A DNA stretch of 64,000 bases. Source: Prevotella jejuni. Its GTDB lineage: Bacteria; Bacteroidota; Bacteroidia; Bacteroidales; Bacteroidaceae. The stretch spans positions 1-64,000 of the forward strand of contig NZ_FZNZ01000005.1 in NCBI RefSeq assembly GCF_900187995.1, written 5' to 3'. Position 1 is the first letter of the stretch. Every line of letters begins with the position of its first letter. The translations under genes and the position numbers were made by a program. The notes beneath the pieces are model-generated. The model worked only from the letters and a program-made list of their open reading frames with translations, did not search any database and had not been told where the DNA came from. Of the stretch, positions 32,935 through 46,500 are shown one piece after another.

Positions 32935-32942
32935 TACCTTTG
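32935..32942 (+). promoter_or_regulatory. Probable promoter of the tubulin-like/Ter operon
   Basis: TACCTTTG is a perfect -7 box; the -33 region (GTCGTTATTA) is weak. The start would be near 32949, leaving a leader of about 265 nt. The leader includes a palindrome ATGCCATGGCAT (33089-33100) and a TTGTCT...AGACAA stem (33136-33162). The long leader suggests control after initiation or a second start site. Confidence 0.5.
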
Positions 32943-33213
32943 CTGCGTGTAAATGCTGGGAGAATTAAACTTTACATCAGCATCGAAGGAATAATCCTAA
33001 ATCCTAACCAGTGAAAATGAATAACTCTAAATACATTACACATTAATATAATATAGGTAGCACAACAGTAACAATCGTTGCGTTTGTGATGCCATGGCAT
33101 ACCACTATGTAAGGCATTACAATGCAGGTTCCCACCTTTGTCTCGTTGTGTTAAGACAATCGTATAATTTACTGACAGCTTGGGAACAGCATGTTAAATA
33201 TCACATAAAAGCG

Positions 33214-34629
33214 ATGATTAACAGTTGTAAGAATCAATTGACCAATAGGAACCAGCTTAAAAGTAAGCTACAAAAGACGACGCAAGCACTTACATGGGCG
33301 ACCTTAACCATCTTTGGCTTTATAGGTCTAAGCGCATGTAGCTCTAAGATAGCGACCGTATCAGACACGAAGTATATACCCGAATTTCAACAAACCTATT
33401 TCAGTAAGGGCGTCGACGAGATATCACCTGACAAGCTATCGCTATATGTAGACTATTCAAAATGTATCTCGTTAGGGCAGAACTCTCCCTTCTTTCAGGC
33501 ATTAGTACCCTCATGGACCGATGCCACAAGGAAGTATTACTCTATCAAAGGAAATAGTATTGAGCAACATCAACCAGACTCAACCTTCGTGCTCCTACGT
33601 AACATCGAGGAGACAAACTATGCCGACCTCAAGACGGCAGCAGAGCGTATGGCCAATGAGAACAACGAGTCAGTGCTCCTTACCGATGGTGAATATTTCC
33701 AGCCATCCATTGCTAAAGGGAATATCAACAACCCTTATATGGCTGGTGCCTTAAAGTCATGGCTGAAGAAGGGACATGACATCTATATCCTTTCAGAGCC
33801 TTACACAGAGCCATATAATGGTCAGACTTTCAACAAGAAACGTTTCTACATCCTCTTCACAGACTGTAGGCTGAAGGGGAATATCTATGAGCGTATCATG
33901 CAGACCATCAACCTCAAACAGTTCCCACAGGTTGAGTTGTTCCACCTCTCGGCCGACCATCCACAGTTGCTATCGAAGAACGCACAGACAACCGAGCCTA
34001 ACCAGCAACTGAATGCCAAGGTATCATCGAATGAAAATGGCTATGAGGTGCAAGACTGGGAGATTGATTGGGAAAACGGCATAGAGCCCTTGATTGTTAA
34101 TGCAGTCAATCCTAATACAGGTCAACCACTCCCTGATGGAGAGGCTTTCATCTCTGGATGGAAATTAGACAGAGAGAGTTTCGGTGGTTATCGCATAACA
34201 GGAGTATCGGCTAAGGTGTATAATATCAATCAGGAGTACTCTGACTTCTACAATGCCAAGGATGCTAAGCAGAAGCCAGAGGCTAAGATTGACCCTGCTG
34301 AGTGCGAGTACTTCGTAAAAGTAGACCCAAAAGAGTTCAACGAACATGGTAAGATTGATTTACATTTCGATACACAGAACTACAATCCAGACCCTGTGCT
34401 GAATGGTTCACCCTTCAACTATTTCAAGATAGACATCTGTGTATCAAAGGTAGAACCATTATTTGAAAAGTACAAACATATCTTCACCTTTGACAGTATA
34501 GACATGCCTGGCAATAAGAATGTGTCCGTAGCAGCGAGCGTAGAGCAATGCCTTACCGACCCAGACATTAAAGCAATGATCAGCACCTGTCCTATCTATA
34601 CCATCTATGTAAAGACTAATGAGCGTTAA
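33214..34629 (+). CDS. Lipoprotein with a degenerate vWA-like domain
   Basis: The frame is open from 33094, but the Met at 33214 leads directly into a lipoprotein signal (hydrophobic ATLTIFGFIGLSAC, lipid Cys42), so it is preferred; product 471 residues. After the Cys, residues 75-260 alternate strands and helices as in a von Willebrand A fold: LSLYVDYSKC with D80 and S82 at the metal site, LLTDGEYF with T157-D158, then IYILSEPY and FYILFTDCR strands. The canonical DxSxS is altered to DYSKC, so metal binding is uncertain. About 290-471 is beta-rich with no family I know. It is the first gene of the nine-gene operon, 18 nt before the next. By position it could be the periplasmic or outer-membrane sensor or scaffold of the system. 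Confidence 0.72.
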   Translation: MINSCKNQLTNRNQLKSKLQKTTQALTWATLTIFGFIGLSACSSKIATVSDTKYIPEFQQTYFSKGVDEISPDKLSLYVDYSKCISLGQNSPFFQALVPSWTDATRKYYSIKGNSIEQHQPDSTFVLLRNIEETNYADLKTAAERMANENNESVLLTDGEYFQPSIAKGNINNPYMAGALKSWLKKGHDIYILSEPYTEPYNGQTFNKKRFYILFTDCRLKGNIYERIMQTINLKQFPQVELFHLSADHPQLLSKNAQTTEPNQQLNAKVSSNENGYEVQDWEIDWENGIEPLIVNAVNPNTGQPLPDGEAFISGWKLDRESFGGYRITGVSAKVYNINQEYSDFYNAKDAKQKPEAKIDPAECEYFVKVDPKEFNEHGKIDLHFDTQNYNPDPVLNGSPFNYFKIDICVSKVEPLFEKYKHIFTFDSIDMPGNKNVSVAASVEQCLTDPDIKAMISTCPIYTIYVKTNER

Positions 34630-34647
34630 ACCTAAAATTATTTTAAT

Positions 34648-35034
34648 ATGACACCTATAACTAACATCTCACAACTTAACCAGTTGATGAACAGCACAAT
34701 GGTCTATGCTGTTGTCGTTGGCTTCGTAGCCCTCCTTTTAGCCCTGCTCCTTTCAAACATGTTCCCATGGGAAGGTGGCAACGACCGTTCGTATATCAAA
34801 CGACGTATTGCATTCATTGTAATAGCAATCATAGCCGTTTTGGGCTTTTGGCTATACAATGATTTAGTAGTGATGACACATATTCATAACATGGGATTTC
34901 AGAATATGTTCAAGGCATGTAACCTTAAATGTATGGGCATCAACCTTGGTGTCTACCTCGTTGCGGGCGTTGCACTAATGTTCACCTTCCGCCATTCTAA
35001 GTTTGGATCTATACTCGGCAAAGAAAAAAAATAA
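34648..35034 (+). CDS. Small membrane protein, three predicted helices
   Basis: A 128-residue protein. Membrane segments are predicted at about 17-37 (VYAVVVGFVALLLALLLSNM), 52-71 (IAFIVIAIIAVLGFWLYN) and 95-114 (LGVYLVAGVALMFTF). Basic residues (KRR, and KEKK at the end) flank them, placing the loop after helix 1 and the C-terminus in the cytoplasm by the positive-inside rule. Two Cys lie in FKACNLKCMG before helix 3. No known family is seen. It is 7 nt before the tubulin-like gene and could tether that protein to the inner membrane, which is inference from context. Confidence 0.75.
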   Translation: MTPITNISQLNQLMNSTMVYAVVVGFVALLLALLLSNMFPWEGGNDRSYIKRRIAFIVIAIIAVLGFWLYNDLVVMTHIHNMGFQNMFKACNLKCMGINLGVYLVAGVALMFTFRHSKFGSILGKEKK

Positions 35035-35041
35035 TATCATC

Positions 35042-36658
35042 ATGGCAAGACAATTCTTCGTACTTGGTATCGGTGGAACAGGTATGCGATGCATAGAGTC
35101 GCTTATCCACCTGTGTGCCATGGGTATGTTTGATGATACAGACATTCACCTACTGGCACTTGACACTGACAAAAACAACGGTAACTTCTCACGCTTAAAG
35201 GAAGTAAAGGATGCCTATTGCAACACTAAGGGGCAAGACAGGGCAAACAGAGTAGCGCTGAAGAACTCGTTCTTCTCTGCTAATATAAACTATTACGAGT
35301 TTAGCCCTAACTACGAACAGAAGAGTACTTTTAAGGCTGTCTTTAACTATGGTGACACACAGTATAACCATAGAGAGGAGACAGACTTAGCCGACCTTGT
35401 GTTGTCAGAGAACGTGGAAGACTTCAACCTCCGCCATGGCTATCGCGCACAAACCCATTTAGGATCAATGATGATGTATCATTCTATCCTCGAAGCGGCT
35501 AAGTCACCAGCAAATAATGAGTTGAAGCTATTTCTTAGCGAACTCATCAGAGCATCTCAGAACGGCCAACCAAGAGTGTTCATCCTTGGTTCGGTATTCG
35601 GCGGAACAGGTGCTTCGTCTATCCCTATCATCCCACAAGCAATCTCTAAAGCTGCTGAGATAATGAGCAATGGAGCTGCCAACGTACTCAGAAGTGCCTA
35701 CTTTGGCTCTACTCTTCTTACTGCCTATTTCAGCTTTAGAGCGCCAAGTGGTGGCGAGCTAAACAATCAGAAGATTATTGCAACAAGTGATAAGTTTGCA
35801 CTAAACTCACAAGTAGCAATGATGTTCTATGATGATGACGCTACGGTAAAGAGCACTTATCAGAAATTCTATATGCTTGGGACGGATAATCTTAGCTGGA
35901 ACCCAATGCAAAGAAAGGAAGACACAATAACACAAACAATTACAGGTGGCGAGCAACAAAAGAATGACTCCCACTACATAGAACTGCTTGCTGCCTGTGC
36001 TGCGCTCGATTTCTATAACACGGATGAAAGCCAACTTCAACAAAACAAGGACCTCCATAAGACTGATTACGAGTATCGTGCAGTTTCTGAAAGTGGTAAA
36101 CTTGACTTTGAAGACTTTGTCGGTAAGGAGAGAGCCAAGGAATTTGCACAGAAGTTTGGAATGCTGATAGCCTTCTCTCTCTTCTGTAATGGCAAGGATG
36201 ACTTTGTAGAGAGTGTAAGGTCTGGAGGCCAGAAAGAAATCCAAGAGTTCGTCGAAATGGATATCACACAGGCAAAGAGTTTGAGAGAATACTTCAACCT
36301 CTTCTTCGTGAAACAAGTGGGAGACAATCTTCAAGAGGGTTGGCTCCGACAGATCCATCGCTCAGCAGGTGGACAGGATGCCTTCTTGTTCAATGCCAAC
36401 CTATTCTCTCCAATGACGTTCAAAGAACTGATGAAGATGGATTGGAATAAATGTATCTATAGAAACGAAGGCATTGGTAAAGACAATACTTATAGTAAGA
36501 GTGGAGTGTTGGGATTTGGTTCTTTATTCGACCCATTCAAGAAACAGTTCATACAAACGCGTGACACTACAAAGGAGTGGCAGAACCTTACCAACAAAGG
36601 AGAGCAGCTGTATAAGTTGATATTCGACACATTAGCAAAGTTGTATAAGTTTAATTAA
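35042..36658 (+). CDS. Tubulin/FtsZ-like GTPase-fold protein (Tubulin_2 type)
   Basis: The frame is open from 35003, but MARQFFVLGIGGTG at 35042 is the natural start; product 538 residues. It opens with a beta strand and the Gly loop GIGGTGMR (9-16), then helix IESLIHLC and strand IHLLALDTD, as in nucleotide-binding tubulin-like folds. The tubulin signature appears as FGGTGASS (186-193), directly after strand RVFILGSV. About 210-538 is less conserved and helical near the end. It is shorter than many Tubulin_2 proteins (often near 1000 residues) and longer than FtsZ. FtsZ-like families of this kind have been proposed to remodel membranes or to serve in conflict systems. GTP binding and polymerisation are inferred. 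It sits between a 3-TM protein and an actin-fold ATPase. Confidence 0.75.
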   Translation: MARQFFVLGIGGTGMRCIESLIHLCAMGMFDDTDIHLLALDTDKNNGNFSRLKEVKDAYCNTKGQDRANRVALKNSFFSANINYYEFSPNYEQKSTFKAVFNYGDTQYNHREETDLADLVLSENVEDFNLRHGYRAQTHLGSMMMYHSILEAAKSPANNELKLFLSELIRASQNGQPRVFILGSVFGGTGASSIPIIPQAISKAAEIMSNGAANVLRSAYFGSTLLTAYFSFRAPSGGELNNQKIIATSDKFALNSQVAMMFYDDDATVKSTYQKFYMLGTDNLSWNPMQRKEDTITQTITGGEQQKNDSHYIELLAACAALDFYNTDESQLQQNKDLHKTDYEYRAVSESGKLDFEDFVGKERAKEFAQKFGMLIAFSLFCNGKDDFVESVRSGGQKEIQEFVEMDITQAKSLREYFNLFFVKQVGDNLQEGWLRQIHRSAGGQDAFLFNANLFSPMTFKELMKMDWNKCIYRNEGIGKDNTYSKSGVLGFGSLFDPFKKQFIQTRDTTKEWQNLTNKGEQLYKLIFDTLAKLYKFN

Positions 36659-36668
36659 TAGGGAAGTT

Positions 36669-39600
36669 ATGTCTAAAGCATTATTGATAAAGAGTTATAC
36701 CAACCTGACAACAGGAACTCAAGGTCAGTGGAACGAGCTTAACATGGCTTCGTCCTACATCCAAGGTATTGAAACAGGAAAGATATTAGAAGGGTTGACA
36801 GCGGAGAAACTTGCTGCACTCATCTCTGGTGTTCCTACACCATGGGCACGTGCTAAACTCTTCAAGTTTGCCTTGCAGACAATTGCAAGCCCCGACCCAA
36901 ATATTAAAGCGTCTGGCTTACAGCAGTTCTATGACATGCTCTATGGTGAATGGAAGGGTCTGTTAGCAACCATCGCACTGTTCCCTGATCGTATTCGGTT
37001 CTCTAATCCTATCAAGATGGACGTTAAGGGAGATGAATATGATATCGCTGCCGCATTCGGTCGTATGCTTTTTGAAGATAAGGACGTGTGGGGCAATCAA
37101 GATAAACTTGCTAAGAACCCTGACGAACAACCGTTTATTCACCTCATCTACTACCGTGACCATTTGGTCGGTGGTACCTCCCCTATGACAGGAGTCTTCA
37201 CTGGTGTCAACTATGCCAACCTCGGTGATGATGCCAGTGACATAGAGTGGTATCGTGATGGAAAGTTTGAAGACCCAACGAGATACCTCTCCCCAGACCA
37301 GTTACAAAAGGTCTACTTGTTCATAAAGAATATGAATAGCAACCTTGAGGAGTTCGAGAAGAAGATTAATTCGCAAAGAGGTGGTAAACAACCTATATCC
37401 ATCGACGGCTTTAAACAGATGAGTCGTAAATGGGAACAGGAGTTGTTATATTGTGGTGGCGGTAACCTTCGCGATAAAGGACCTATCGCTAAATATGGCA
37501 ATCTGGAGTGTCCTTTCTCACTTCTCCTTAAGAGTGATGTGCCAGTCTACCTTAAACCAGACTACACCTTCACCTATACCAATAATGGAGACTACAAGCT
37601 CATCGGTGACATTCAGGACCTTCTTAGCGATGACAAGTTCGTCATTGGTTGGGCTGAGGATGCTGATACACGTCCAAAACTGTCTGATGCTCCGGTATTC
37701 TACCTAAGGGTCAAGGAACTAAAAGACGGCAGTATGAGCTATTTCACACTCCCACTTTCAGAAAGAGGTATAGATATCTTCAAGAATAATCTACGTGGTC
37801 TGTTAGGGTACAACGAGAGCGGTAACACCTCACTTACAGGTGTTATCACAGACGCAGGACAGTTAGCAGTAACACTGATTGTAGAGATTGACGGTCAGAA
37901 AGTGACGTTGAATACCCGTGAGTATGAGATTGATTGGATTACAGATCTGGGTAAGGTGATTATGTGGCCAGACTTTGTATCAGAGAGATGGGACAAGTAT
38001 TACCTCTATTCAGAGTTTACCGCCGATGCTCAAGAGCAGTTCCAACCTATCTTCAAATGGCAGGGTGAGTTTGTAAGGACCATTGACGAAAAGTTTTGGA
38101 CAGCCGATTACGAACCTTCAGCAGACGAAGATATACAGATAAAGGTCAAGAAGCTGATTACTTATCCAGCCGGACAAGGTGAAGAACTACCTAAGTATAA
38201 CATCATCTGTGCTAACAAACCTTTAGCCGGACTGTCTGCTTTTGTCAAAGACACAGGCCGTGATGTTCACGCAGGCTACCTCATCTTCCGTCAGGACGTG
38301 ATAGTCGACAAGAGTACAATAGACCTAAACGGTACTGCCGTAGTAGGTATAGACTTTGGAAGTAACAACACCTGTGTATATTATAATGCAGGCGACAGAG
38401 GGGCTAACCCAGTTGAGTTTAAGAATTATAGAACAGTGCTTGTAGGTAAAGAGAACAGCGATACCCGCTCTATAGCAGAGAATAATGAGCTACTGTTCTT
38501 TACCAACTATGTATCCGAGAACGGACAGGTTAAGTCTTGGCTCCACGAACATGACACAAGGTATAACTGCTATAATGAATCAGAGGAAATCGCTGGTGGC
38601 GTCCCTGTAAACAGACCGAATATCTTTGTGAAGGAGATGAACCAGTATGAAATCAAGACTCAAGCTGGTACGTTACACTATAATATGAAGTGGCTGGACA
38701 ATGATAAAGGCTTGCAAAAGAAGCGTGCTTTCCTGAAGTCTATATGGCTGCAAACCTGCGCATACCTTTATAAAGAGGAGCGAATACGGCCAGAAGAGCT
38801 GCGATGGAGTTACCCTGGTTCGATGATGGAGGCCGACAGTGCCGAGCTTGAGAAAATCTTTGAAGAGCTATGCCGAATGACCCCTATTACAGGAGGACGT
38901 CAACCACAATTAGGTAGAGAACTAACTACTGAGGCCGAGGCTGTCTGTAGCTTTGCCCTTTCACGTGACTTCGGACTGAACAAGGACAACATGTTCCTCG
39001 GTATTGATGTCGGTGGAAGTACGAGTGATATCCTACTCCTTGCCAAAGACCAGAACAACGGCAACAAGTCGTCACTCTATCGGGAGAGTTCTGTCCGCAT
39101 AGCCGCTGGAGTCTTCTTCAATGCGGTCATCAAGTCAGAGTCATTCCGTCAGGCGTTAGTTAGTTTCCATGAAGGAAGGAAGACAAAGGTCTTTGTTGCT
39201 AACATCAAGGAAGTTCTGACACAGCCATCAAAGGCACCTTACTATCTGAACAGTATCTTCGACCAATTAAAGAGCGAAAACGACTACGAGGAGTTCTACT
39301 CTTCTATCAACAATAATGCGAGGTTTGTATTCACAATCCCAGCCTACGTGACAGGTCTGCTGCTCTTCTATTCTGGCATGCTGATAGGTAAGACTATCAA
39401 AACAGAGAAGATGGACCATATCAGAAGGGTTGATGTTCTCTCCTTTGGTAAGGGTGGTAGACTCTTCCATTGGCTCAGAAGTTCGGCAACACAAAGGGTG
39501 ACAAACGAGTATTATGAGAAATGTCTCAATGCTGGTGTAAACCTTGTTACAGAAAAGAACTTGGAGGTGAAATACCGAGATGAGATTGAGATAAACAACA

Positions 39601-40055
39601 AGGCCGAGGTGGCAATGGGACTTGTTGACGCTAAGGAGCTCATAAAGAAGCAACAAGAGGTTGATTCAGACATCTGTGGTGAGACTGGCGTCAAGTACAT
39701 CATGAATGATGGTACGCCTAAAGAGCTCCAGACAGAAGATGAGCTTACGGGTGAGTACTTTGCAAATGAGATGAATAAATTCGACTTCTCAGGAGTAACA
39801 AACTTTGAGAAATTTATGGAGATATTCATCGACTTTGTCAGTCAAAAGACTCGTCTCTATCCACAAGCAGACAATTTACGAGAGGAACTTGCAGACCTCC
39901 CGAACAGAATCACAAGCTATATCTGCAATAATGATGATGAGTACCGCAAGGCACGTAGGACTCAAGGCGACGACTTCACCTATCATCAGCCAATCATCAT
40001 AGCAGAAGGTGCTTGCTTCTTAGACACATTAATAAAGAAAGCATTCAATCAATAA
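36669..40055 (+). CDS. Large actin/Hsp70-fold ATPase-like protein
   Basis: An 1128-residue protein. The first 550 residues form a unique region with helical N-terminus (EGLTAEKLAALISGVPTPWA) and beta-rich middle. The actin/Hsp70-type ATPase lies at about 555-1000: phosphate-1 loop VVGIDFGSNNTC (558-569), phosphate-2 loop FLGIDVGGSTSD (776-787) and a late adenosine-type motif VDVLSFGKGGRLF near 920. The tail (1000-1128) is helical. The arrangement recalls the SrfB-type Hsp70-like proteins, though I cannot confirm membership. The ATPase signature residues are intact, so it is probably active. It starts 10 nt after the tubulin-like gene and ends 6 nt before its neighbour, so the three products are probably made in step and may form one complex. 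Confidence 0.75.
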   Translation: MSKALLIKSYTNLTTGTQGQWNELNMASSYIQGIETGKILEGLTAEKLAALISGVPTPWARAKLFKFALQTIASPDPNIKASGLQQFYDMLYGEWKGLLATIALFPDRIRFSNPIKMDVKGDEYDIAAAFGRMLFEDKDVWGNQDKLAKNPDEQPFIHLIYYRDHLVGGTSPMTGVFTGVNYANLGDDASDIEWYRDGKFEDPTRYLSPDQLQKVYLFIKNMNSNLEEFEKKINSQRGGKQPISIDGFKQMSRKWEQELLYCGGGNLRDKGPIAKYGNLECPFSLLLKSDVPVYLKPDYTFTYTNNGDYKLIGDIQDLLSDDKFVIGWAEDADTRPKLSDAPVFYLRVKELKDGSMSYFTLPLSERGIDIFKNNLRGLLGYNESGNTSLTGVITDAGQLAVTLIVEIDGQKVTLNTREYEIDWITDLGKVIMWPDFVSERWDKYYLYSEFTADAQEQFQPIFKWQGEFVRTIDEKFWTADYEPSADEDIQIKVKKLITYPAGQGEELPKYNIICANKPLAGLSAFVKDTGRDVHAGYLIFRQDVIVDKSTIDLNGTAVVGIDFGSNNTCVYYNAGDRGANPVEFKNYRTVLVGKENSDTRSIAENNELLFFTNYVSENGQVKSWLHEHDTRYNCYNESEEIAGGVPVNRPNIFVKEMNQYEIKTQAGTLHYNMKWLDNDKGLQKKRAFLKSIWLQTCAYLYKEERIRPEELRWSYPGSMMEADSAELEKIFEELCRMTPITGGRQPQLGRELTTEAEAVCSFALSRDFGLNKDNMFLGIDVGGSTSDILLLAKDQNNGNKSSLYRESSVRIAAGVFFNAVIKSESFRQALVSFHEGRKTKVFVANIKEVLTQPSKAPYYLNSIFDQLKSENDYEEFYSSINNNARFVFTIPAYVTGLLLFYSGMLIGKTIKTEKMDHIRRVDVLSFGKGGRLFHWLRSSATQRVTNEYYEKCLNAGVNLVTEKNLEVKYRDEIEINNKAEVAMGLVDAKELIKKQQEVDSDICGETGVKYIMNDGTPKELQTEDELTGEYFANEMNKFDFSGVTNFEKFMEIFIDFVSQKTRLYPQADNLREELADLPNRITSYICNNDDEYRKARRTQGDDFTYHQPIIIAEGACFLDTLIKKAFNQ

Positions 40056-40061
40056 ACATTA

Positions 40062-42716
40062 ATGAAGGTTCTTACTTTATACATAGATAAATGGTACATC
40101 ATCGGTGCAGTTTGCATCGATGGTGTGCCACGTCCCATAACTCCTCCTAACGGGGAGGACCGTTTCTGGCTTTACTTCTATGAAGATAGAGTCAACGACA
40201 CTATTGTCTATGGTAAAGATAATAAGCAACATTACCATAATAATGAACTTCAATATTATGGTAATGTCTTTGATCTAATTCCTGATACGACCGCCTCATT
40301 CATACGCTACGGTCGAAAGCAGGAGATGTACAAGATATTTAAGGCCTCAGGTATTCTTGACGAGTTAAGAGACGCTGTCGATGACAATGGAGGAGAGGTA
40401 GAGACTTATATCTCTTTCTCTAAGGACATCTCTGATGCAGCCCGTCTTGTCTTCCTAAAAGACGTACTGGAAGGAAACAAGTTCACCGTAAAAGAGTCGG
40501 TTGCCCGTATCGGACAACTTGCCTTAGAACTTGCTTTCAAGAAAGGACAATATGCGGAAGATGGGTTCTATGTACTGCTCAATGCTTGCAACGAAAATCT
40601 CACCTATTCTGTGTATGAGCGCACAGAAGGTATCCTGTTAAGGAAGGCTGAGGATAGTCTTGTTGGTATGGGAACCGACCTCAGAGGCAGGGCCTTGTTG
40701 GAGAGTGTTATCAAGAGTATCAATCAACGCCAACATTTCCTCGACACAGAAGAAGACCTTGAACGTGAATATCTCTGTCTCAATCAGTATGTCGACCAGT
40801 GGATAGACAAGTTAGAGAATGCAGGTCCATACCGTCCTGTCCACATTAACAACATTAAATTCTCTCAACTCCCTAACACATACGACGCTGTTGTCTTAAA
40901 AGATGATATCGACAAGCATACACGTAGCATTGTCGATGATATCATCAGAGAGATAACTAATTTCATCAACAAAATCAACATACCTGCAGGAAAGCTCAAA
41001 GGAGTTGTTTTCTTAGGAAACACTTTTACAAACGAACAGTTTATCAGAGCTATCAAAGAGCGTTACGCCCTACCTGACAAGAACTATATTTTCTTTAAGG
41101 ACTCCGAACTCCCACATATTGTTGCAGTCTATTCTGCAATAGATTGCGACCAGTTTTCAGAGGCAACCCGTGTAGCCATCGCCAATGGTGAGACTGAATT
41201 AGAACGCCGAAGACTTGCACAAGAGGAAGAGGCAAGAAGAGTTGAGGCCGAACGACAGAGGGCTGAACAGGAAGAAAAGGATAGAGCTGCGCACGAGTCA
41301 GAGAATAAGTATAAAGAGGCGATGGCCAATATCTATGATTATGAGAAGAAGCAAGACTATGCCCAGATGTTAGATTGGGCCGACATCGCACTTCAACATA
41401 ATCCTGACGACCAAGAGGCAAAGCAGAAGAAGGCTGAGGCTACACGACTCATGTCGGAGAAGAAGGTGAAAGAGGAGCAATATAAAAGTATCATTCAGCG
41501 AGCACAAAAGAGCTTTGAGGCTATGCAATGGCAAGAAGCACTATCGCAGAGTGATGCCGCATTGAACCTGATGCCGAACTCTAAAGAGGCTGAACGTATC
41601 CACCAAGCAGCAAGAGAAAAGATTGACTCGCTGACCTTGATTGAGAAATATCTTACTCGTGCTGACATGTTCCTGGCACAACAATACTACAAAGAGGCAC
41701 TTGACGAGCTTAGGAAGGTACAGGCTATTGACAACGAGAACAAGGAGGCACAGGGGCGAATACAGAAGATAGAACAAGAGCAGGAGGCGCATGAACAACG
41801 TGTTACAGACCTCATTAAGCAATACCAGATGGCTGAGGAGGCTAAGGACTTCGACACTGCTATATCCTTGTGTAACGAGCTGATTGACACAGACACCGTC
41901 TACCAACGTAAGTGGACAGAAAGGGTTGAACGACTGAAAGCGGCAAAGCTCGACTTTGATAAAGAGGAGGAGAGATGGCAAAAGCTTAAACGTCAGATTG
42001 ATTCGGCCCTCTTCGACGAGGATTGGGATAAAGTAGTTACCTATGGTCATGAGGCACTCAGGATGCGTGAGGACGAGAACCTCCGTAAGAATGTTGCCCG
42101 TGCTGAAGAGAAGCTCGCTACCTTACAGGCTGAGAAACGATACAAAGATGCTGTCCATGAGGTCAAAGACTTCATCGTTGACAAGAATTGGGATGAGGCA
42201 AAAGACTTATTGACAGAATTGCAGAGGGAGTATCCTGAACATCGTAACGACCTGAAACTGCTATTCAAACAGATATTCGATGCCGAGACTGCCTTTCAGA
42301 GTCAAACCGTAAGCGAAAGCAGGACACAACCTGTTCGGACTGTTAGCAACCGCAATTCTCAGCATCAAGAAGATGATTTCTTTGGGACAAGCGGTAAGAC
42401 AACGACCACATCGAGTGGCTATTCTAACACCGTCTCCAATGCTGAACAGGCGTATGCAGAATCCTCCTCTACAATAACAAAAGAAGAAACACAGGGTGAT
42501 GACTTCTTTGAAACAGGTGGTAAGGCAACGACGACGACAAGTGGCAGCACCCACTCCACCGCCATTTCCGACCCTCAGCGTACGACATCTACTGGTTCAT
42601 CAACAAAGAAGTCGACCGATGAAGATGATTTCTTTGACATGAAAAAGCCTCCTGTCAAGGGCAAGACAAACAGAGGGAAGACAGCAAGAGGCACTGACAA
42701 TGATTTTGATTTTTAG
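40062..42716 (+). CDS. Degenerate actin-like head, TPR/coiled-coil body, acidic-FF tail
   Basis: An 884-residue protein in three parts. Residues 1-360 have the strand order of an actin/Hsp70 fold: MKVLTLYIDKWYIIGAV at the start, YVLLNACNENLTYSVY near 170 and LKGVVFLGNTFTNEQ near 313. The glycines and Asp of the phosphate loops are missing, so it is probably a non-catalytic partner. Residues 370-430 form a charged coiled coil (ERRRLAQEEEARR). About 410-750 has five or six TPR-like helix pairs (YDYEKKQDYAQMLDWADIAL, FEAMQWQEALSQSDAAL). The 750-884 tail is Ser/Thr-rich and disordered, with EDDFF at 770-774, DDFF at 813-816, DEDDFFD at 853-859 and a terminal DFDF. These look like repeated docking motifs. 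The closest guess is a scaffold that joins the ATPase to several copies of a partner such as TerD. Confidence 0.7.
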   Translation: MKVLTLYIDKWYIIGAVCIDGVPRPITPPNGEDRFWLYFYEDRVNDTIVYGKDNKQHYHNNELQYYGNVFDLIPDTTASFIRYGRKQEMYKIFKASGILDELRDAVDDNGGEVETYISFSKDISDAARLVFLKDVLEGNKFTVKESVARIGQLALELAFKKGQYAEDGFYVLLNACNENLTYSVYERTEGILLRKAEDSLVGMGTDLRGRALLESVIKSINQRQHFLDTEEDLEREYLCLNQYVDQWIDKLENAGPYRPVHINNIKFSQLPNTYDAVVLKDDIDKHTRSIVDDIIREITNFINKINIPAGKLKGVVFLGNTFTNEQFIRAIKERYALPDKNYIFFKDSELPHIVAVYSAIDCDQFSEATRVAIANGETELERRRLAQEEEARRVEAERQRAEQEEKDRAAHESENKYKEAMANIYDYEKKQDYAQMLDWADIALQHNPDDQEAKQKKAEATRLMSEKKVKEEQYKSIIQRAQKSFEAMQWQEALSQSDAALNLMPNSKEAERIHQAAREKIDSLTLIEKYLTRADMFLAQQYYKEALDELRKVQAIDNENKEAQGRIQKIEQEQEAHEQRVTDLIKQYQMAEEAKDFDTAISLCNELIDTDTVYQRKWTERVERLKAAKLDFDKEEERWQKLKRQIDSALFDEDWDKVVTYGHEALRMREDENLRKNVARAEEKLATLQAEKRYKDAVHEVKDFIVDKNWDEAKDLLTELQREYPEHRNDLKLLFKQIFDAETAFQSQTVSESRTQPVRTVSNRNSQHQEDDFFGTSGKTTTTSSGYSNTVSNAEQAYAESSSTITKEETQGDDFFETGGKATTTTSGSTHSTAISDPQRTTSTGSSTKKSTDEDDFFDMKKPPVKGKTNRGKTARGTDNDFDF

Positions 42717-42753
42717 CATTCACATACAATAAACATTTAATCAATTAGTAATT

Positions 42754-43335
42754 ATGGCAGAAGTAACATTAAAGAAAAAGATTACTCTTCGTAAAAAGCA
42801 GGAGGAGTGTGCCTTCACATTCTCAGGTAAGCTCAAAGTTAAGTTGTTATGGAACTCACCAACAGACTTAGACCTTTGCATCTTCTTTAAGAAGAAGGAT
42901 GGCGAAGTGGGTGGCGTCTTCTCTAATGAGTATCGTGGTAGAAAGAGCGACCTCGGCGCATTAGATAAGTTCCCATTCATGCTTCACTTAGGCGATAACA
43001 AGGAACCTTCAGAGGGTGGTGAGGAGACTGAACAGATCAACGTTGCCAGTCTTGACGAAATCGAGAGCGCTTACGTTTGCATCATCAACTACAATGCAGC
43101 AATCGAGCAGCTCGATATTACTTACGCTGACGAGGGCGGTCGTGTTGAACTTCAGAGCGACTCTGGTGATTACCTCGAGGTATTGGCCGACGCAAAGGAG
43201 ACTGGTCACGTTTATTGCGTATGCTCTATCAAAAACAACGGTGGCAGCTATGCGCTCAAGAATGAGAGCCGCGTAATGGATCTTGGTACTGCTTTCGATG
43301 AGATACCAGGCTTCGCAATTATATGCAACGACTAA
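42754..43335 (+). CDS. TerD-family protein
   Basis: A 193-residue cytoplasmic protein of the TerD/TerZ/CABP family. The core motif KLLWNSPTDLDLCIFF (about 29-45) carries the DLDL of the calcium-binding strand; then come a paired acidic strand region (ESAYVCIINYNAAIEQL) and a Gly-rich finish. It is in the normal size range. TerD proteins are linked to tellurite, phage and stress resistance as parts of membrane-associated complexes. The N-terminus (EVTLKKKITLRKK) is basic and resembles the N-terminus of the next protein. It is fused tightly to the operon: 37 nt after the scaffold gene, and the next ATG begins one base after its stop. Confidence 0.85.
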   Translation: MAEVTLKKKITLRKKQEECAFTFSGKLKVKLLWNSPTDLDLCIFFKKKDGEVGGVFSNEYRGRKSDLGALDKFPFMLHLGDNKEPSEGGEETEQINVASLDEIESAYVCIINYNAAIEQLDITYADEGGRVELQSDSGDYLEVLADAKETGHVYCVCSIKNNGGSYALKNESRVMDLGTAFDEIPGFAIICND

Positions 43336-43336
43336 T

Positions 43337-44041
43337 ATGGTTGAAATTAAAAGGAAGGTTACACTGAGGACAAAGACGTCTCAGCCAGAGGAGAAACCCA
43401 CAACAGAGGTGACGCCTGAGGTGCAGTCGTCTGCGTCCCAACAGGAACCAACACCTACCCCACCTCCTCCTACAGAGCCTACAACCAATGCTGAAGGCAG
43501 TAAGAGGGGTGGAAATTGGAAGCAATGGTTGGCTGCATTTGTTCTTGCAGCACTTCTTCGTGGTGGCTATTACCTGTACAACAACAGTCAAGGGAACGAC
43601 GTTCAGGACACTACTACTGTGGCTAAGACCGACAGTACGGATACCCAGAAAGACTCTACACAGACGGCCCAAGCTGACTCTACAACTAAGGTGAAGCCTG
43701 AAGCTGACGGCAACAACGTTGCCACAGAGACTGCTAACGAAACGGCAGCCGAAGACAATTCTGTTAGCGAAACCACGACACCTTCAAACAATACCTCAGC
43801 TAATAACACTACTGCTAACACAACGACAGACCAGCAGACAGCGTCTACGGATAATCTTGGGACGTCAAGCAATACCGAGCCAACGGCAGCTGAACCAGCT
43901 AACTCTGTTCAAGAAACAGCAAAGGATGTTATCAGAGGAACATACGGTAATGGTGTGACGCGTAGGCATAAACTGGGTTCTCGCTATGAGGAAGTCCAGA
44001 AGCGTGTCAATGAAATGTACCGACAGGGACTAATTCGCTAA
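43337..44041 (+). CDS. Single-pass membrane anchor with C-terminal CW_7 motif
   Basis: A 234-residue protein; the Met at 43337, one base after the TerD stop, is preferred to the longer frame from 43283. The N-terminus VEIKRKVTLRTK echoes that of TerD. A Pro/Thr/Glu-rich cytoplasmic part follows, then one membrane helix near 67-84 (KQWLAAFVLAALL), then about 105 residues of Thr/Asn/Gln/Ala-rich low complexity (90-193), and a final 41 residues: AKDVIRGTYGNG, LGSRYEEVQKRVNEMY. This end closely fits the CW_7 repeat of the Cpl-7 lysozyme, which binds cell-wall muropeptide. By topology the CW_7 end would lie in the periplasm at the peptidoglycan. It therefore links the Ter/tubulin-like complex to the wall. 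The family call is from memory of the motif. Confidence 0.72.
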   Translation: MVEIKRKVTLRTKTSQPEEKPTTEVTPEVQSSASQQEPTPTPPPPTEPTTNAEGSKRGGNWKQWLAAFVLAALLRGGYYLYNNSQGNDVQDTTTVAKTDSTDTQKDSTQTAQADSTTKVKPEADGNNVATETANETAAEDNSVSETTTPSNNTSANNTTANTTTDQQTASTDNLGTSSNTEPTAAEPANSVQETAKDVIRGTYGNGVTRRHKLGSRYEEVQKRVNEMYRQGLIR

Positions 44042-44116
44042 TACCTTCACTCACTTTATACATGAGGGTGTACTCAAATCAATAGATGAGTACACCTTCA
44101 TACAAAACGAATTATC

Positions 44117-44281
44117 ATGCTGATATACATAATTCTCGCAGTCATTTTATGGCTTGTACTCCCCATTTTCATCAATGGACGTATCAAAAAGAAACATGAC
44201 CGAAAGGCATTAATCATGCTGTGTCGTATCTTAGCCATCGCATTTATTGCCCTTGGCATTTATAGAGAATTATTTATCTAA
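44117..44281 (+). CDS. Small membrane protein, 54 aa
   Basis: The frame MLIYIILAVILWLVLPIFI... starts 75 nt after the anchor gene. It encodes two membrane helices (about 2-19 and 33-51) joined by a strongly basic loop (GRIKKKHDRK), so both ends face the periplasm by the positive-inside rule. It ends YRELFI. The regular hairpin build, the position on the operon strand and the clear gap it fills make it a likely real gene. No family is recognised. It could modulate the neighbouring membrane proteins. Confidence 0.6.
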   Translation: MLIYIILAVILWLVLPIFINGRIKKKHDRKALIMLCRILAIAFIALGIYRELFI

Positions 44282-44358
44282 ACGCATTTTGCGTTGGTGA
44301 TCATATCACCTTAGCTTACAGAGATAAGTAGAATTAAATATCATAACATTTCAAAATT

Positions 44359-44727
44359 ATGGAAAACTTAGATGAATTGAAGAAGAGTCTACTTGCTGAT
44401 GGCAAAATAGACAAGGAGGAAGTAGAGCAACTACGCAAAGTGCTTTATGCTGACGGAGTAATTGATGCAGAAGAGGTAGCCTTCCTCTTCGAGCTCAACG
44501 ACGCTGTTTCTGGTGAGAACAATGCTCCAGAATGGAAGGAGTTCTTTGTTGAAGCAATATCTGACAATATTCTTGCAGATGGCGAAATCGACGAAGAAGA
44601 AGTGAAGATGCTGTCTGAAAAGATTGGCGCTGACGGTCAAGTAGATGAAACAGAGAAAGCTCTGTTGCTGAACTTGAAGGCTAAAGCAAAGAATTTCCCA
44701 GCTGTCCTCGATTCTCTTTTGAAATAA
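44359..44727 (+). CDS. TerB-like acidic protein with four ADG-D-E motifs
   Basis: A 122-residue, very acidic, helical protein. Four related motifs occur: LADGKIDKEE (12-21), YADGVIDAEE (30-39), LADGEIDEEE (72-81) and GADGQVDETE (90-99), arranged as two pairs, so it looks like an internal duplication of a half with two motifs. D-x-D/E...E spacing of this kind is typical of TerB-like proteins, which bind metal with such residues; EF-hand-like calcium binding is the alternative. It is the last gene of the operon, 77 nt after the small membrane protein and 43 nt before a perfect terminator stem. TerB and TerD domains are known to form membrane-linked complexes together. Confidence 0.72.
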   Translation: MENLDELKKSLLADGKIDKEEVEQLRKVLYADGVIDAEEVAFLFELNDAVSGENNAPEWKEFFVEAISDNILADGEIDEEEVKMLSEKIGADGQVDETEKALLLNLKAKAKNFPAVLDSLLK

Positions 44728-44770
44728 ACAATAATGTAAATAATATCTTTCTGGATAATTACAATTCGGT

Positions 44771-44805
44771 AGGAGGTAAGCACTCATCACATGTGCTTAC
44801 CTCCT
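44771..44805 (+). terminator. Hairpin ending the tubulin-like/Ter operon
   Basis: A perfect 13-bp stem: AGGAGGTAAGCAC (44771-44783) and GTGCTTACCTCCT (44793-44805) with a 9-nt loop. There is no T run, so it may act as an mRNA 3' end stabiliser or rely on Rho. Its right arm is the last part of a 66-bp repeat unit (see the following array). Confidence 0.6.
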
Positions 44806-44810
44806 GCTGC

Positions 44811-45140
44811 GTATTATCTCGTATGGTTTTATCTTTAATTTCGAGTAAAGATAGTCATGCACTTATCTCCTATGGCAGATTATTTTGTATGGTTTTACTT
44901 GTGGTTCTGAGTGAAGATAATCATGCGCTTATCTCCTATGGCGTATTACCTCGTATGGCTTTATCTTTAATTTCGAGTAAAGATAGTCATGCACTTATCT
45001 CCTATGGCAGATTATTTTGTATGGTTTTACTTGTGGTTCTGAGTGAAGATAATCATGCGCTTATCTCCTATGGCGTATTACATCGTATGATTTTATCTGT
45101 GGTTCTGAGTAAAGATAGTCATTTGCTTACTTCCTGCTGC
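44811..45140. repeat. Five tandem 66-bp repeats, alternating A/B
   Basis: Units start at 44811, 44877, 44943, 45009 and 45075. Units 1 and 3 share TATCTTTAATTTCGAG, units 2 and 4 share ACTTGTGGTTCTGAGTG, so the higher-order period is 132 bp; unit 5 mixes both. Each A unit has a TATCTTTA/TAAAGATA stem. As 66 is a multiple of 3, a 22-residue repeat stays open on the plus strand (44793-45158), but it has no start context and lies after the terminator; I do not call it a gene. There are no unique spacers, so it is not CRISPR. Confidence 0.85.
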
Positions 45141-45849: not shown

Positions 45850-46500
45850 GAACAAGTGGACGAGTTAACCAGTTGCTTGCGACGATAAATCACAGCTTAT
45901 AGTAGTAATTATAAACTGCGAATATTTGGATTTGAGCTTTGAACTATATGATTTGTAGCTTTAATGACTACGAATTGCTCGAATGACACGAATTACTTGA
46001 CTATCACAATTCGTACAATTAGTGAAATTCGTAGTTCTTTGTTGGTAGTTGATAAGTTAACAAGTTTACCAGTTGCTTGCGACGCTAAATCACTGCTCAT
46101 AGTAGTAATTATAAACTGCGAATATTGGAATATGAGCTTTGAACTATATGAGTTGTACATTTAATGACTACGAATTTCTCGAATGACACGAATAGCTTAG
46201 CTATAACAATTCGTACAATTAGAGAAATTCGTAGTTCTTTGTTAGTAGTTGACAAGTGGACAAGTTAACCAGTTGCTTGCAACGATAAATCACAGCTTAT
46301 AGTAGTAATTATAAACTTTGAATATTTGGATTTGAGCTTTGAACTATATGATTTGTAGCTTTAATGACTACGAATTTTTCGAATGGTACGAATAGCTTAG
46401 CTATAACAATTCGTACAATTAGAGAAATTCGTAGTTCTTTGTTGGTAGTTGACAAGTAGATTAGTTTACGAGTTGTTTGTAGCAATAAACGACAGTTGAT
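45850..46500. repeat. 200-bp tandem satellite, just over three copies
   Basis: The marker AGTTGCTTGC occurs at 45871, 46071 and 46271, with AGTTGTTTGT at 46471, an exact 200-base period. Each unit contains an inverted repeat CTACGAATTTCT...AGAAATTCGTAG (for example 46168-46179/46223-46234), with a second inner pair ACGAAT/ATTCGT. Copies differ by a few percent. Short frames inside are not conserved as protein. Confidence 0.85.

What the first reader, a model, noticed from the sequence alone, without database searches (positions are those of the whole stretch)
32935..44805. Nine-gene operon combining tubulin-like, actin-like, Ter and wall-binding proteins
Nine plus-strand genes, mostly 1-37 nt apart, run from a TACCTTTG promoter to a perfect 13-bp hairpin. 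They encode a vWA-like lipoprotein, a 3-TM protein, a tubulin-like protein, an actin/Hsp70-fold ATPase, a degenerate actin-like TPR scaffold, TerD, a CW_7 anchor, a small 2-TM protein and a TerB-like protein. TerD/TerB, vWA and tubulin-like parts are known from conflict and stress systems. Two cytoskeletal-type folds coupled to an envelope anchor in one operon is a set I do not know to be described. A model: a cytoplasmic NTP-driven assembly fixed at the inner membrane and touching peptidoglycan, used for phage or stress defence or for envelope remodelling.
Basis: partly seen in the sequence, partly recalled or inferred. Interest (0 to 1): 0.93.

Follow-up and report, generated by a model that had tools for sequence, protein, structure and literature searches.

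The report
Wall-tethered tubulin–Hsp70 machine with TerD
Nine neighbouring bacterial genes encode a tubulin-like protein, two proteins predicted to fold like Hsp70, a TerD-like protein and a wall-binding membrane anchor that begins with nearly the same short peptide as its TerD partner; together they are predicted to form a wall-tethered machine that would guard the cell envelope, possibly against viruses.

Summary
The set is less unknown than claimed: FtsZl1+vWA+GTPase+OmpA (2010) and tubulin/HSP70/DO-GTPase/GAP1 systems (2020) are published predictions, and 8 relatives carry DO-GTPase/GAP1 genes on this core where the window has TerD plus anchor. New here: (1) TerD and anchor start with the same kind of peptide; in a close relative both carry a different shared peptide, a third pair is weaker; matching is at protein level. 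(2) The anchor's wall domain is swapped once (OmpA for CW_7), and TerB is fused to it once. (3) The g5 tail has DDF(F)-type repeats in 10 of 10 long class-1 g5 and 0 of 6 GAP1-type g5 examined. (4) A P-type ATPase (PMCA Ca2+ type where complete) adjoins 11 of 18 TerD-type and 0 of 28 TerD-less loci. Best reading: a GTPase-less, Ca2+-linked variant of a predicted envelope stress/conflict machine. Docking and function are untested.

The parts
32935..32942 (+). candidate -7 promoter box TACCTTTG
   Evidence: present; no TTTG at 19-21 nt upstream, so half a consensus only
33214..34629 (+). g1: lipoprotein with vWA-like motifs (DxSx ... TDGE)
   Evidence: D82, T159, D160, E162 invariant in 22 aligned rows, C44 nearly invariant; hhalign to a vWA profile failed (3.8%)
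34648..35034 (+). g2: 3-TM membrane protein
   Evidence: found upstream of the tubulin gene in 35 of 53 testable loci, five more (L045, L056, L066, L075, L078) by phmmer
35042..36658 (+). g3: FtsZl1/Tubulin_2-like protein (GIGGTG and FGGTGASS loops)
   Evidence: sub-threshold PF13809 in the window copy, labelled PF13809 in the 99% identical P0001
36669..40055 (+). g4: 1128-aa protein, actin/Hsp70-fold domain at residues about 554-1000 (38328-39668)
40062..42716 (+). g5: degenerate Hsp70 NBD (residues 1-367) plus helical/TPR repeats
42294..42713 (+). g5 disordered tail with DDFF/DNDFDF repeats
   Evidence: (pLDDT under 50)
42754..43335 (+). g6: TerD-like protein
   Evidence: hhalign E 8e-6 to TerD, controls E 0.054 or worse; the same slot in L035 holds a PF02342 TerD (60 bits)
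42754..42798 (+). g6 N-terminal peptide MAEVTLKKKITLRKK, matched by g7
43337..44041 (+). g7: membrane anchor (cytosolic N-terminus, one TM, periplasmic linker)
   Evidence: positive charges before the TM suggest N-in (inference)
43337..43375 (+). g7 N-terminal peptide MVEIKRKVTLRTK
43913..44017 (+). CW_7 wall-binding repeat of g7
   Evidence: PF08230 48 bits, cut-off 25
44117..44281 (+). g8: 54-aa 2-TM protein
   Evidence: hits at the same place in L025, L026, L030, L032, L033, L034, L035, L075
44359..44727 (+). g9: TerB-like protein with four ADGxIDxxE-type repeats
   Evidence: PF05099 24.6 bits, cut-off 24.4; a TerB-like stretch (24.3 bits) lies inside the anchor of L137
44771..44805 (+). 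13-bp perfect inverted repeat, candidate terminator
   Evidence: no T run follows

Best explanation
The nine genes encode a Bacteroidota variant of the predicted tubulin-Hsp70 envelope systems: a tubulin-like protein and a predicted Hsp70/actin-fold ATPase likely assemble under the inner membrane and are predicted to be tied to the cell wall by an anchor that begins with nearly the same peptide as its TerD-like partner. Shown by sequence: the shared peptide, its concerted replacement in a close relative (and a weaker third pair), the CW_7/OmpA swap, the TerB fusion, the repeats of the g5 tail and the Ca2+-pump neighbour of many relatives. Inferred: the anchor's cytosolic tip docks TerD (or the receptor of TerD), g5 (a pseudo-Hsp70 with a repeat-bearing tail) is the scaffold, the vWA-like lipoprotein and the 3-TM protein report the state of the envelope, and NTP-driven assembly by g3/g4 gathers TerD/TerB at a damaged or phage-attacked site, probably in answer to Ca2+ entry that a pump would reverse. 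In sister loci a DO-GTPase/GAP1 pair takes the place of the TerD/anchor module.
For: Core linkage: g4 next to g3 in 50 of 57 testable loci. Folds. Module exchange: one DO-GTPase cluster and one GAP1 cluster, each in the same 8 loci (one member of each scanned: PF19975/PF19993 and PF20013); of 14 loci with at least 6.5 kb beyond g4, 8 have TerD and CW_7, 2 GAP1, none both. Peptide: the pattern is in 19 of 20 TerD and 11 of 12 CW7 ORFs and 0 of 224 other ORFs of 13 loci; g6 and g7 profiles align over 18 N-terminal columns (62.6%, E 7e-5). L034 and L035 are 91% (g3) and 82% (g4) identical, but TerD is 24% and the anchor's first 30 residues 14% identical (last 60: 68%), while L035's own TerD and anchor share F[ST][DE]ADFDK. 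L136/L137 show a third, related pair. 49 of 139 identical residues share a codon, about chance. OmpA replaces CW_7 in L044; TerB-like stretch in the L137 anchor. g5-tail motif in 10 of 10 long class-1 g5, 0 of 6 GAP1-type g5. P-type ATPase in 11 of 18 TerD-type and 0 of 28 TerD-less loci. Tyrosine recombinase upstream of four relatives, relaxase in L155.
Against: No interaction, polymer, NTPase or phenotype was tested. TerD identity of g6 rests on 86 aligned columns and no Pfam hit. Only three peptide versions were found, and the third is weak: the L136 anchor scores 25 with its own TerD and 26 with L137's, and 91 of 2000 shuffles reach 25; L037 (64) and L044 (39) are weak too. The pattern was written after seeing the alignment. 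In L137 7 of 9 identical residues share a codon, so copying is not excluded there. L035 also differs from L034 in g1 and g2 (68-69%) and g5 (54%), so its changes are not limited to TerD, anchor tip and tail. L044 has class-1 TerD but no tail motif by the pattern. The pump is not beside the operon in the window (it lies on another contig). vWA of g1 was not confirmed by profile. PADLOC models give no convincing match. 7 of 57 loci lack g4 beside g3.
Confidence: 0.5

Rival explanations
1. The shared peptide is a tag read by a third partner (for example the acidic-aromatic tail of g5, or g4), so that TerD and anchor are recruited side by side rather than to each other.
For: The tail motif occurs with the basic peptide and is absent in L035, where peptide and tail both differ (net tail charge +1 in L034, +11 in L035). 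By eye several anchors carry the motif more than once (L030, L033, L037, L130, L136, L137).
Against: The class-3 g5-like ORFs end without the motif (by eye, not counted). TerD's own N-terminal segment is a natural mimic target.
Confidence: 0.35
2. A housekeeping or accessory envelope-building machine (wall or outer-membrane remodelling, cell shape) with no role in defence.
For: CW_7/OmpA wall domains, lipoprotein, 3-TM protein; Makarova & Koonin proposed membrane remodelling (PMC2875224).
Against: Patchy: g4 matched in 4 of 150 genomes of the genus, the own one included; recombinases upstream of four relatives; Ter, DO-GTPase and GAP1 partners are assigned to stress/conflict systems in PMC7159879 and PMC7824862 (passages).
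Confidence: 0.25
3. An ordinary GAP1-N2-type GTPase-centric system that merely lost its GTPase.
For: Core shared with GAP1-type loci.
Against: The own genome has no PF20013 or PF19993 match; the TerD/anchor module occurs in two parts of the tubulin tree and TerD and CW_7 go together in 8 of 8 testable loci; the 2020 paper calls its tubulin and HSP70 themes non-overlapping (though its overview names both parts together).
Confidence: 0.15
4. The peptide match is a by-product of local duplication or gene conversion, or of low-complexity basic sequence.
For: The genes are adjacent; the class-1 peptide is Lys-rich; 7 of 9 identical residues in L137 share a codon.
Against: Codon sharing over 17 loci at chance level (49 of 139); class 2 is acidic, not Lys-rich; 0 of 2000 composition shuffles reach the score in 12 of 17 loci; 0 of 224 other ORFs carry the pattern.
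Confidence: 0.1

Closest known systems
FtsZl1 / vWA / GTPase / OmpA membrane-remodelling system (Makarova & Koonin 2010, PMC2875224; parts 1-2 of 5 and passages read)
   Same: FtsZl1-type tubulin relative, vWA-like secreted protein, TM proteins; OmpA wall domain in the L044 anchor; a Bacteroides caccae member in their alignment
   Different: No GTPase here; Hsp70, DnaK and TerD do not occur in its main text; its supplementary gene families were not seen, so g4 may be among them unnamed
GTPase-centric conflict systems, GAP1-N2 type (Kaur et al. 2020, PMC7159879; sections 27-28 and passages read)
   Same: Tubulin, HSP70-fold proteins, vWA, TPR, membrane and peptidoglycan-binding parts; sister loci of this core carry DO-GTPase and GAP1-N2
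   Different: The window lacks DO-GTPase2 and GAP1-N2; tubulin and HSP70-like parts occur in one operon although that paper lists them as non-overlapping themes, in other phyla
ter operons (TerB/TerD/TerF; passages in PMC7824862 and PMC8123226)
   Same: TerD-like and TerB-like proteins with a vWA-like partner; suggested sub-membrane role and Ca2+ link
   Different: No TerC among the nine; tubulin and Hsp70-like core; wall anchor carrying TerD's N-terminal peptide
Zorya (ZorA/ZorB)
   Same: Only by analogy: the second tubulin/ASKHA locus of the same genome has ZorB-like and weakly ZorA-like genes
   Different: No ZorA/B match in the window operon

Membership tests
FtsZl1 system (PMC2875224) | FtsZ-like nucleotide-binding domain with GGGTG(S/T)G loop | tested here: inconclusive
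   loop reads FGGTGASS; Tubulin_2 21.4 bits against 27 in the window copy, PF13809 label on the 99% identical P0001
FtsZl1 system (PMC2875224) | coiled coil plus helical C-terminal domain after the FtsZ domain | not tested
   g3 is 538 aa; its structure was not predicted
FtsZl1 system (PMC2875224) | linked vWA-domain gene | tested here: inconclusive
   DxSx and TDGE conserved; profile comparison 3.8%
FtsZl1 system (PMC2875224) | linked P-loop GTPase (frequent, not universal) | tested here: not met
   none among the nine by Pfam; present in 8 sister loci by cluster
GAP1-N2 GTPase-centric system (PMC7159879) | DO-GTPase | tested here: not met
   PF19993: 0 matches in the own genome; PF19975 was not searched genome-wide
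GAP1-N2 GTPase-centric system (PMC7159879) | GAP1 with N2 domain | tested here: not met
   PF20013: 0 matches in the own genome
GAP1-N2 GTPase-centric system (PMC7159879) | tubulin and/or HSP70 components (in subsets) | tested here: met
   g3; g4 and g5 by fold
ter operon | TerD domain | tested here: inconclusive
   no Pfam hit, hhalign E 8e-6; Pfam TerD in the same slot of L035
ter operon | TerC membrane protein | tested here: not met
   no TerC match among the nine products
catalogued anti-phage systems (PADLOC 2.0) | match to a described system's genes | tested here: not met
   only weak hits (best E 3e-5, over the low-complexity part of g7)
actin/Hsp70 (ASKHA) superfamily, g4 | two phosphate loops and the fold | tested here: met

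The most novel reading that the evidence does not exclude
A lineage-specific 'peptide code' couples TerD to a wall anchor on a tubulin-Hsp70 machine: the anchor's cytosolic tip is a copy of TerD's first strand and captures TerD by strand exchange when Ca2+ enters through a breached envelope (for instance during phage DNA entry); polymerisation of g3/g4 then gathers TerD/TerB there, and a PMCA-type pump resets the cell. TerD/anchor and GTPase/GAP1 are interchangeable output cassettes of one core. Gut huge phages that carry TerD and a Ca2+ pump of their own (PMC12363816, passages read) would be counter-players.
Probability: 0.2. Interest if true: 0.9.

Novelty: new variant of a known kind. Interest (0 to 1): 0.74.

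Why it matters
It shows tubulin-like and Hsp70-like parts in one conserved operon with two exchangeable output modules, and it offers a directly testable contact: a peptide shared by TerD and a wall anchor that differs in step between lineages. TerD has been tied to phage, colicin, tellurite and Ca2+ phenotypes (PMC8123226, passages) without an agreed mechanism; here is a setting where its partner can be guessed from sequence.

Tried and rejected
Filing it as a classic ter operon (no TerC; tubulin/Hsp70 core), as a GAP1 system (GAP1-N2 and DO-GTPase2 absent from the genome), as Zorya (only the second locus has ZorB-like and weak ZorA-like genes) or as a PADLOC system. vWA by profile comparison failed. 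Solved-structure searches with the g1, g3 and g6 profiles gave nothing useful. g4 and g5 show no profile similarity to each other (0.1%) although both have the same fold class. A pairwise comparison of the Ca2+ pump with a TerD was pointless. Gene conversion as the general source of the shared peptide is made unlikely by codon use (L137 is an exception). In viral contigs the g3 and g6 profiles found the operon in one contig only (L153/L155; L154 is a 26% TerD-like match), where it lies beside a relaxase and an integrase, so I read it as a mobilisable element rather than phage cargo; a search with the class-3 TerD confirmed nothing there. Literature searches listed no paper on this combination; subscription papers, most preprints and the supplementary files of the two key papers were not seen.
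Full report
OBSERVATION. The window holds nine plus-strand ORFs at 33214-44727 with gaps of 18, 7, 10, 6, 37, 1, 75 and 77 nt. The promoter claim is half right: TACCTTTG is there, but no TTTG at 19-21 nt upstream (the operon's promoter is not among the six full matches in the window). The 13-bp hairpin is perfect and has no T run.

SYNTENY. A genome-contig scan gave 61 loci; 59 had a tubulin ORF in my gene calls. g4 directly follows g3 in 50 of 57 with enough DNA, the 3-TM gene precedes it in 35 of 53 (five more by phmmer), the lipoprotein gene is present in 34 of 46, g5 in 24 of 38. Loci without g4 beside g3: L046, L051, L052, L053, L061, L071, L080. All nine genes in one place: the window and L033. 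A separate TerB-like gene was seen besides only in L037 (cluster) and, by eye, L130.

TWO OUTPUT MODULES. Eight loci carry, after the same core, a gene of one DO-GTPase cluster and one of one GAP1 cluster; one member of each was scanned: L068 PF19975 38 bits and PF19993 33 bits (cut-offs 27), L083 PF20013 GAP1-N2 35 bits (cut-off 24). These are the defining parts of the GTPase-centric systems of Kaur et al. 2020 (PMC7159879; sections 27 and 28 and passages read). The TerD/CW_7 module takes their place in the window's clade and again in L136/L137; of 14 loci with at least 6.5 kb beyond g4, 8 have TerD and CW_7, 2 GAP1, none both. On the tubulin tree class-1 TerD and GAP1 each need two changes and class-3 TerD lies beside the second GAP1 group (quick tree; 27 of 60 inner branches starred, long branches flagged). 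The window's genome has no GAP1-N2 or DO-GTPase2 match.

THE SHARED PEPTIDE. g6 starts MAEVTLKKKITLRKK and g7 MVEIKRKVTLRTK; their family profiles align over 18 N-terminal columns (62.6%, E 7e-5). In 13 loci the pattern occurs in 19 of 20 TerD and 11 of 12 anchor ORFs and in 0 of 224 others (pattern written after seeing the alignment). The anchor exception is L035 (Phocaeicola sartorii). Its TerD slot holds a Pfam TerD (60 bits) that starts MAKKLFSDADFDK, and its anchor starts MADNKIFTEADFDKE. L035 and L034 are 91% identical in g3, 82% in g4, 66-69% in g1, g2 and c8 and 54% in g5, but 24% in TerD and 14% in the anchor's first 30 residues, against 68% in its last 60. L136 and L137 (same genus as the window) have TerDs starting M[AGS]RF[NDQ][LI].K[GD]ERF (one of L137's matches the solved TerD 2kxt at 4e-25) and anchors with RSFNMEK..RHFDIEK or RNFNLNK..RNFNLEK. 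Cognate alignment scores: L035 43 (best non-cognate 19), L137 38 (26), L136 25 (26 with L137's TerD). Composition shuffles of the anchor tip reach the observed score in 0 of 2000 for 12 of 17 loci, and in 91, 64, 39, 10 and 4 of 2000 for L136, L037, L044, L130 and L137. Of 139 identical residues 49 use the same codon, near the chance level of 0.19-0.54 per residue type, so over all loci the match is kept at protein level; in L137 alone it is 7 of 9. In L044 (a Chlorobiaceae MAG) the anchor keeps NVTLKRK and the TM but carries OmpA (62 bits) in place of CW_7; in L137 a TerB-like stretch (24.3 bits, just under the cut-off of 24.4) lies between peptide and linker. The 10 TerD-type loci with a g5 ORF of 800 aa or more and the class-1 peptide (of the loci) all have at least two DD?F[FWDN] motifs in the last 170 residues; L035 has none (tail net charge +11 against +1 in L034), nor do the six GAP1-type g5 or the short ORFs of L038, L041 and L044; L029's g5 is split, and its last piece has the motif.

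CALCIUM. A P-type ATPase gene on the same strand adjoins 11 of 18 loci with tubulin and the TerD module: within about 1.2 kb in ten (L026, L029, L030, L032, L035, L040, L075, L136, L140, L141; upstream in L029) and 4.6 kb away in L130. L039, a 4-kb contig with a TerD fragment, is left out of the 18. The three near-complete ones examined (L029, L140, L141) pass the PMCA-type Ca2+ equivalog cut-off TIGR01517; L040 (cut off by the stretch) reaches 448 of 507 bits and L130 is a fragment. None of 28 TerD-less tubulin loci of the genome-contig scan with at least 3 kb downstream has one on the same strand; L065 has one on the other strand 7 kb away. The further TerD-less stretches, several of them the same contigs again, have none except a weak hit on the other strand in L019. 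Fisher 2e-6 ignores relatedness: L025/L026/L075 and L136/L141 are 96-97% identical in g3. Two truncated loci of the window's clade, L027 and L041, also have one upstream. The window lacks it locally; its genome has one on another contig. PMC8123226 (passages read) reports that K. pneumoniae TerD binds Ca2+; PMC12363816 (preprint, passages read) reports TerD genes and a Ca2+ P-type ATPase in huge phages predicted to infect Bacteroides/Phocaeicola.

MOBILITY AND RARITY. Own genome included, g4 matched in 4 of 150 genomes of the genus, and its profile in 30 of 399 of the family and 21 of 393 of the order, many of them weak matches of the second, divergent type; the g6 profile in 4 of 393 of the order, the other three distant and with no tubulin gene in the stretches fetched. 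Tyrosine recombinases sit 0.2-0.6 kb upstream of g1 in L034, L035, L038 and L140 (Pfam for three, L038 by cluster), and L155, of the same layout as L140, shows a relaxase further upstream.

MECHANISM. Shown: gene content, folds by model, shared and co-changing peptide, module exchange, neighbours. Inferred: the anchor ties TerD (or its receptor) to the wall through the peptide; g3/g4 drive assembly; g5 scaffolds; g1/g2 sense the envelope; Ca2+ is the likely signal. Envelope damage or phage entry as trigger follows from what is proposed for Ter and GTPase-centric systems (PMC7824862, PMC7159879, passages) and is not tested here.

VERDICT. A real, conserved, probably mobile operon: a new variant of a published class of predicted systems, with one new testable feature, the TerD/anchor peptide.

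Noticed in passing
L017 (G000:C25:1-14503), second locus of the window's own genome: A divergent tubulin-like/ASKHA-like gene pair followed by a ZorB1/MotB-like gene (PADLOC E 7e-14) and a weak ZorA-like gene (4e-7); L148 (same family) has a ZorB-like gene (E 5e-10) in a similar layout. A possible link between tubulin-like systems and Zorya-type motors.
   Followed up: partly
window 44790-45129 and 45852-46479: A 66/132-bp tandem array that begins next to the operon's hairpin, and a 200-bp array of 3.1 copies further on.
   Followed up: no
L131, L132, L134 (G305, G409): Distant TerD-like genes, paired in L131 and L132 behind a ~771-aa gene of unknown function and without a tubulin gene in the stretches fetched: another TerD setting.
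   Followed up: no
L025, L026, L030, L032-L035, L037, L075, L130, L140: A conserved ~190-aa lipoprotein (c8) follows g7/g8 in these 11 loci; tblastn finds no convincing copy in the window.
   Followed up: partly
L052, L053: Loci with g3 but without g4 beside it and with a 1361-aa gene directly upstream, suggesting further partner sets.
   Followed up: no
L028, L036: Operon pieces on 4-kb contigs of MAGs labelled Eubacteriales/Clostridia fall inside the Bacteroidota clade of the tree; probably mis-binned.
   Followed up: no
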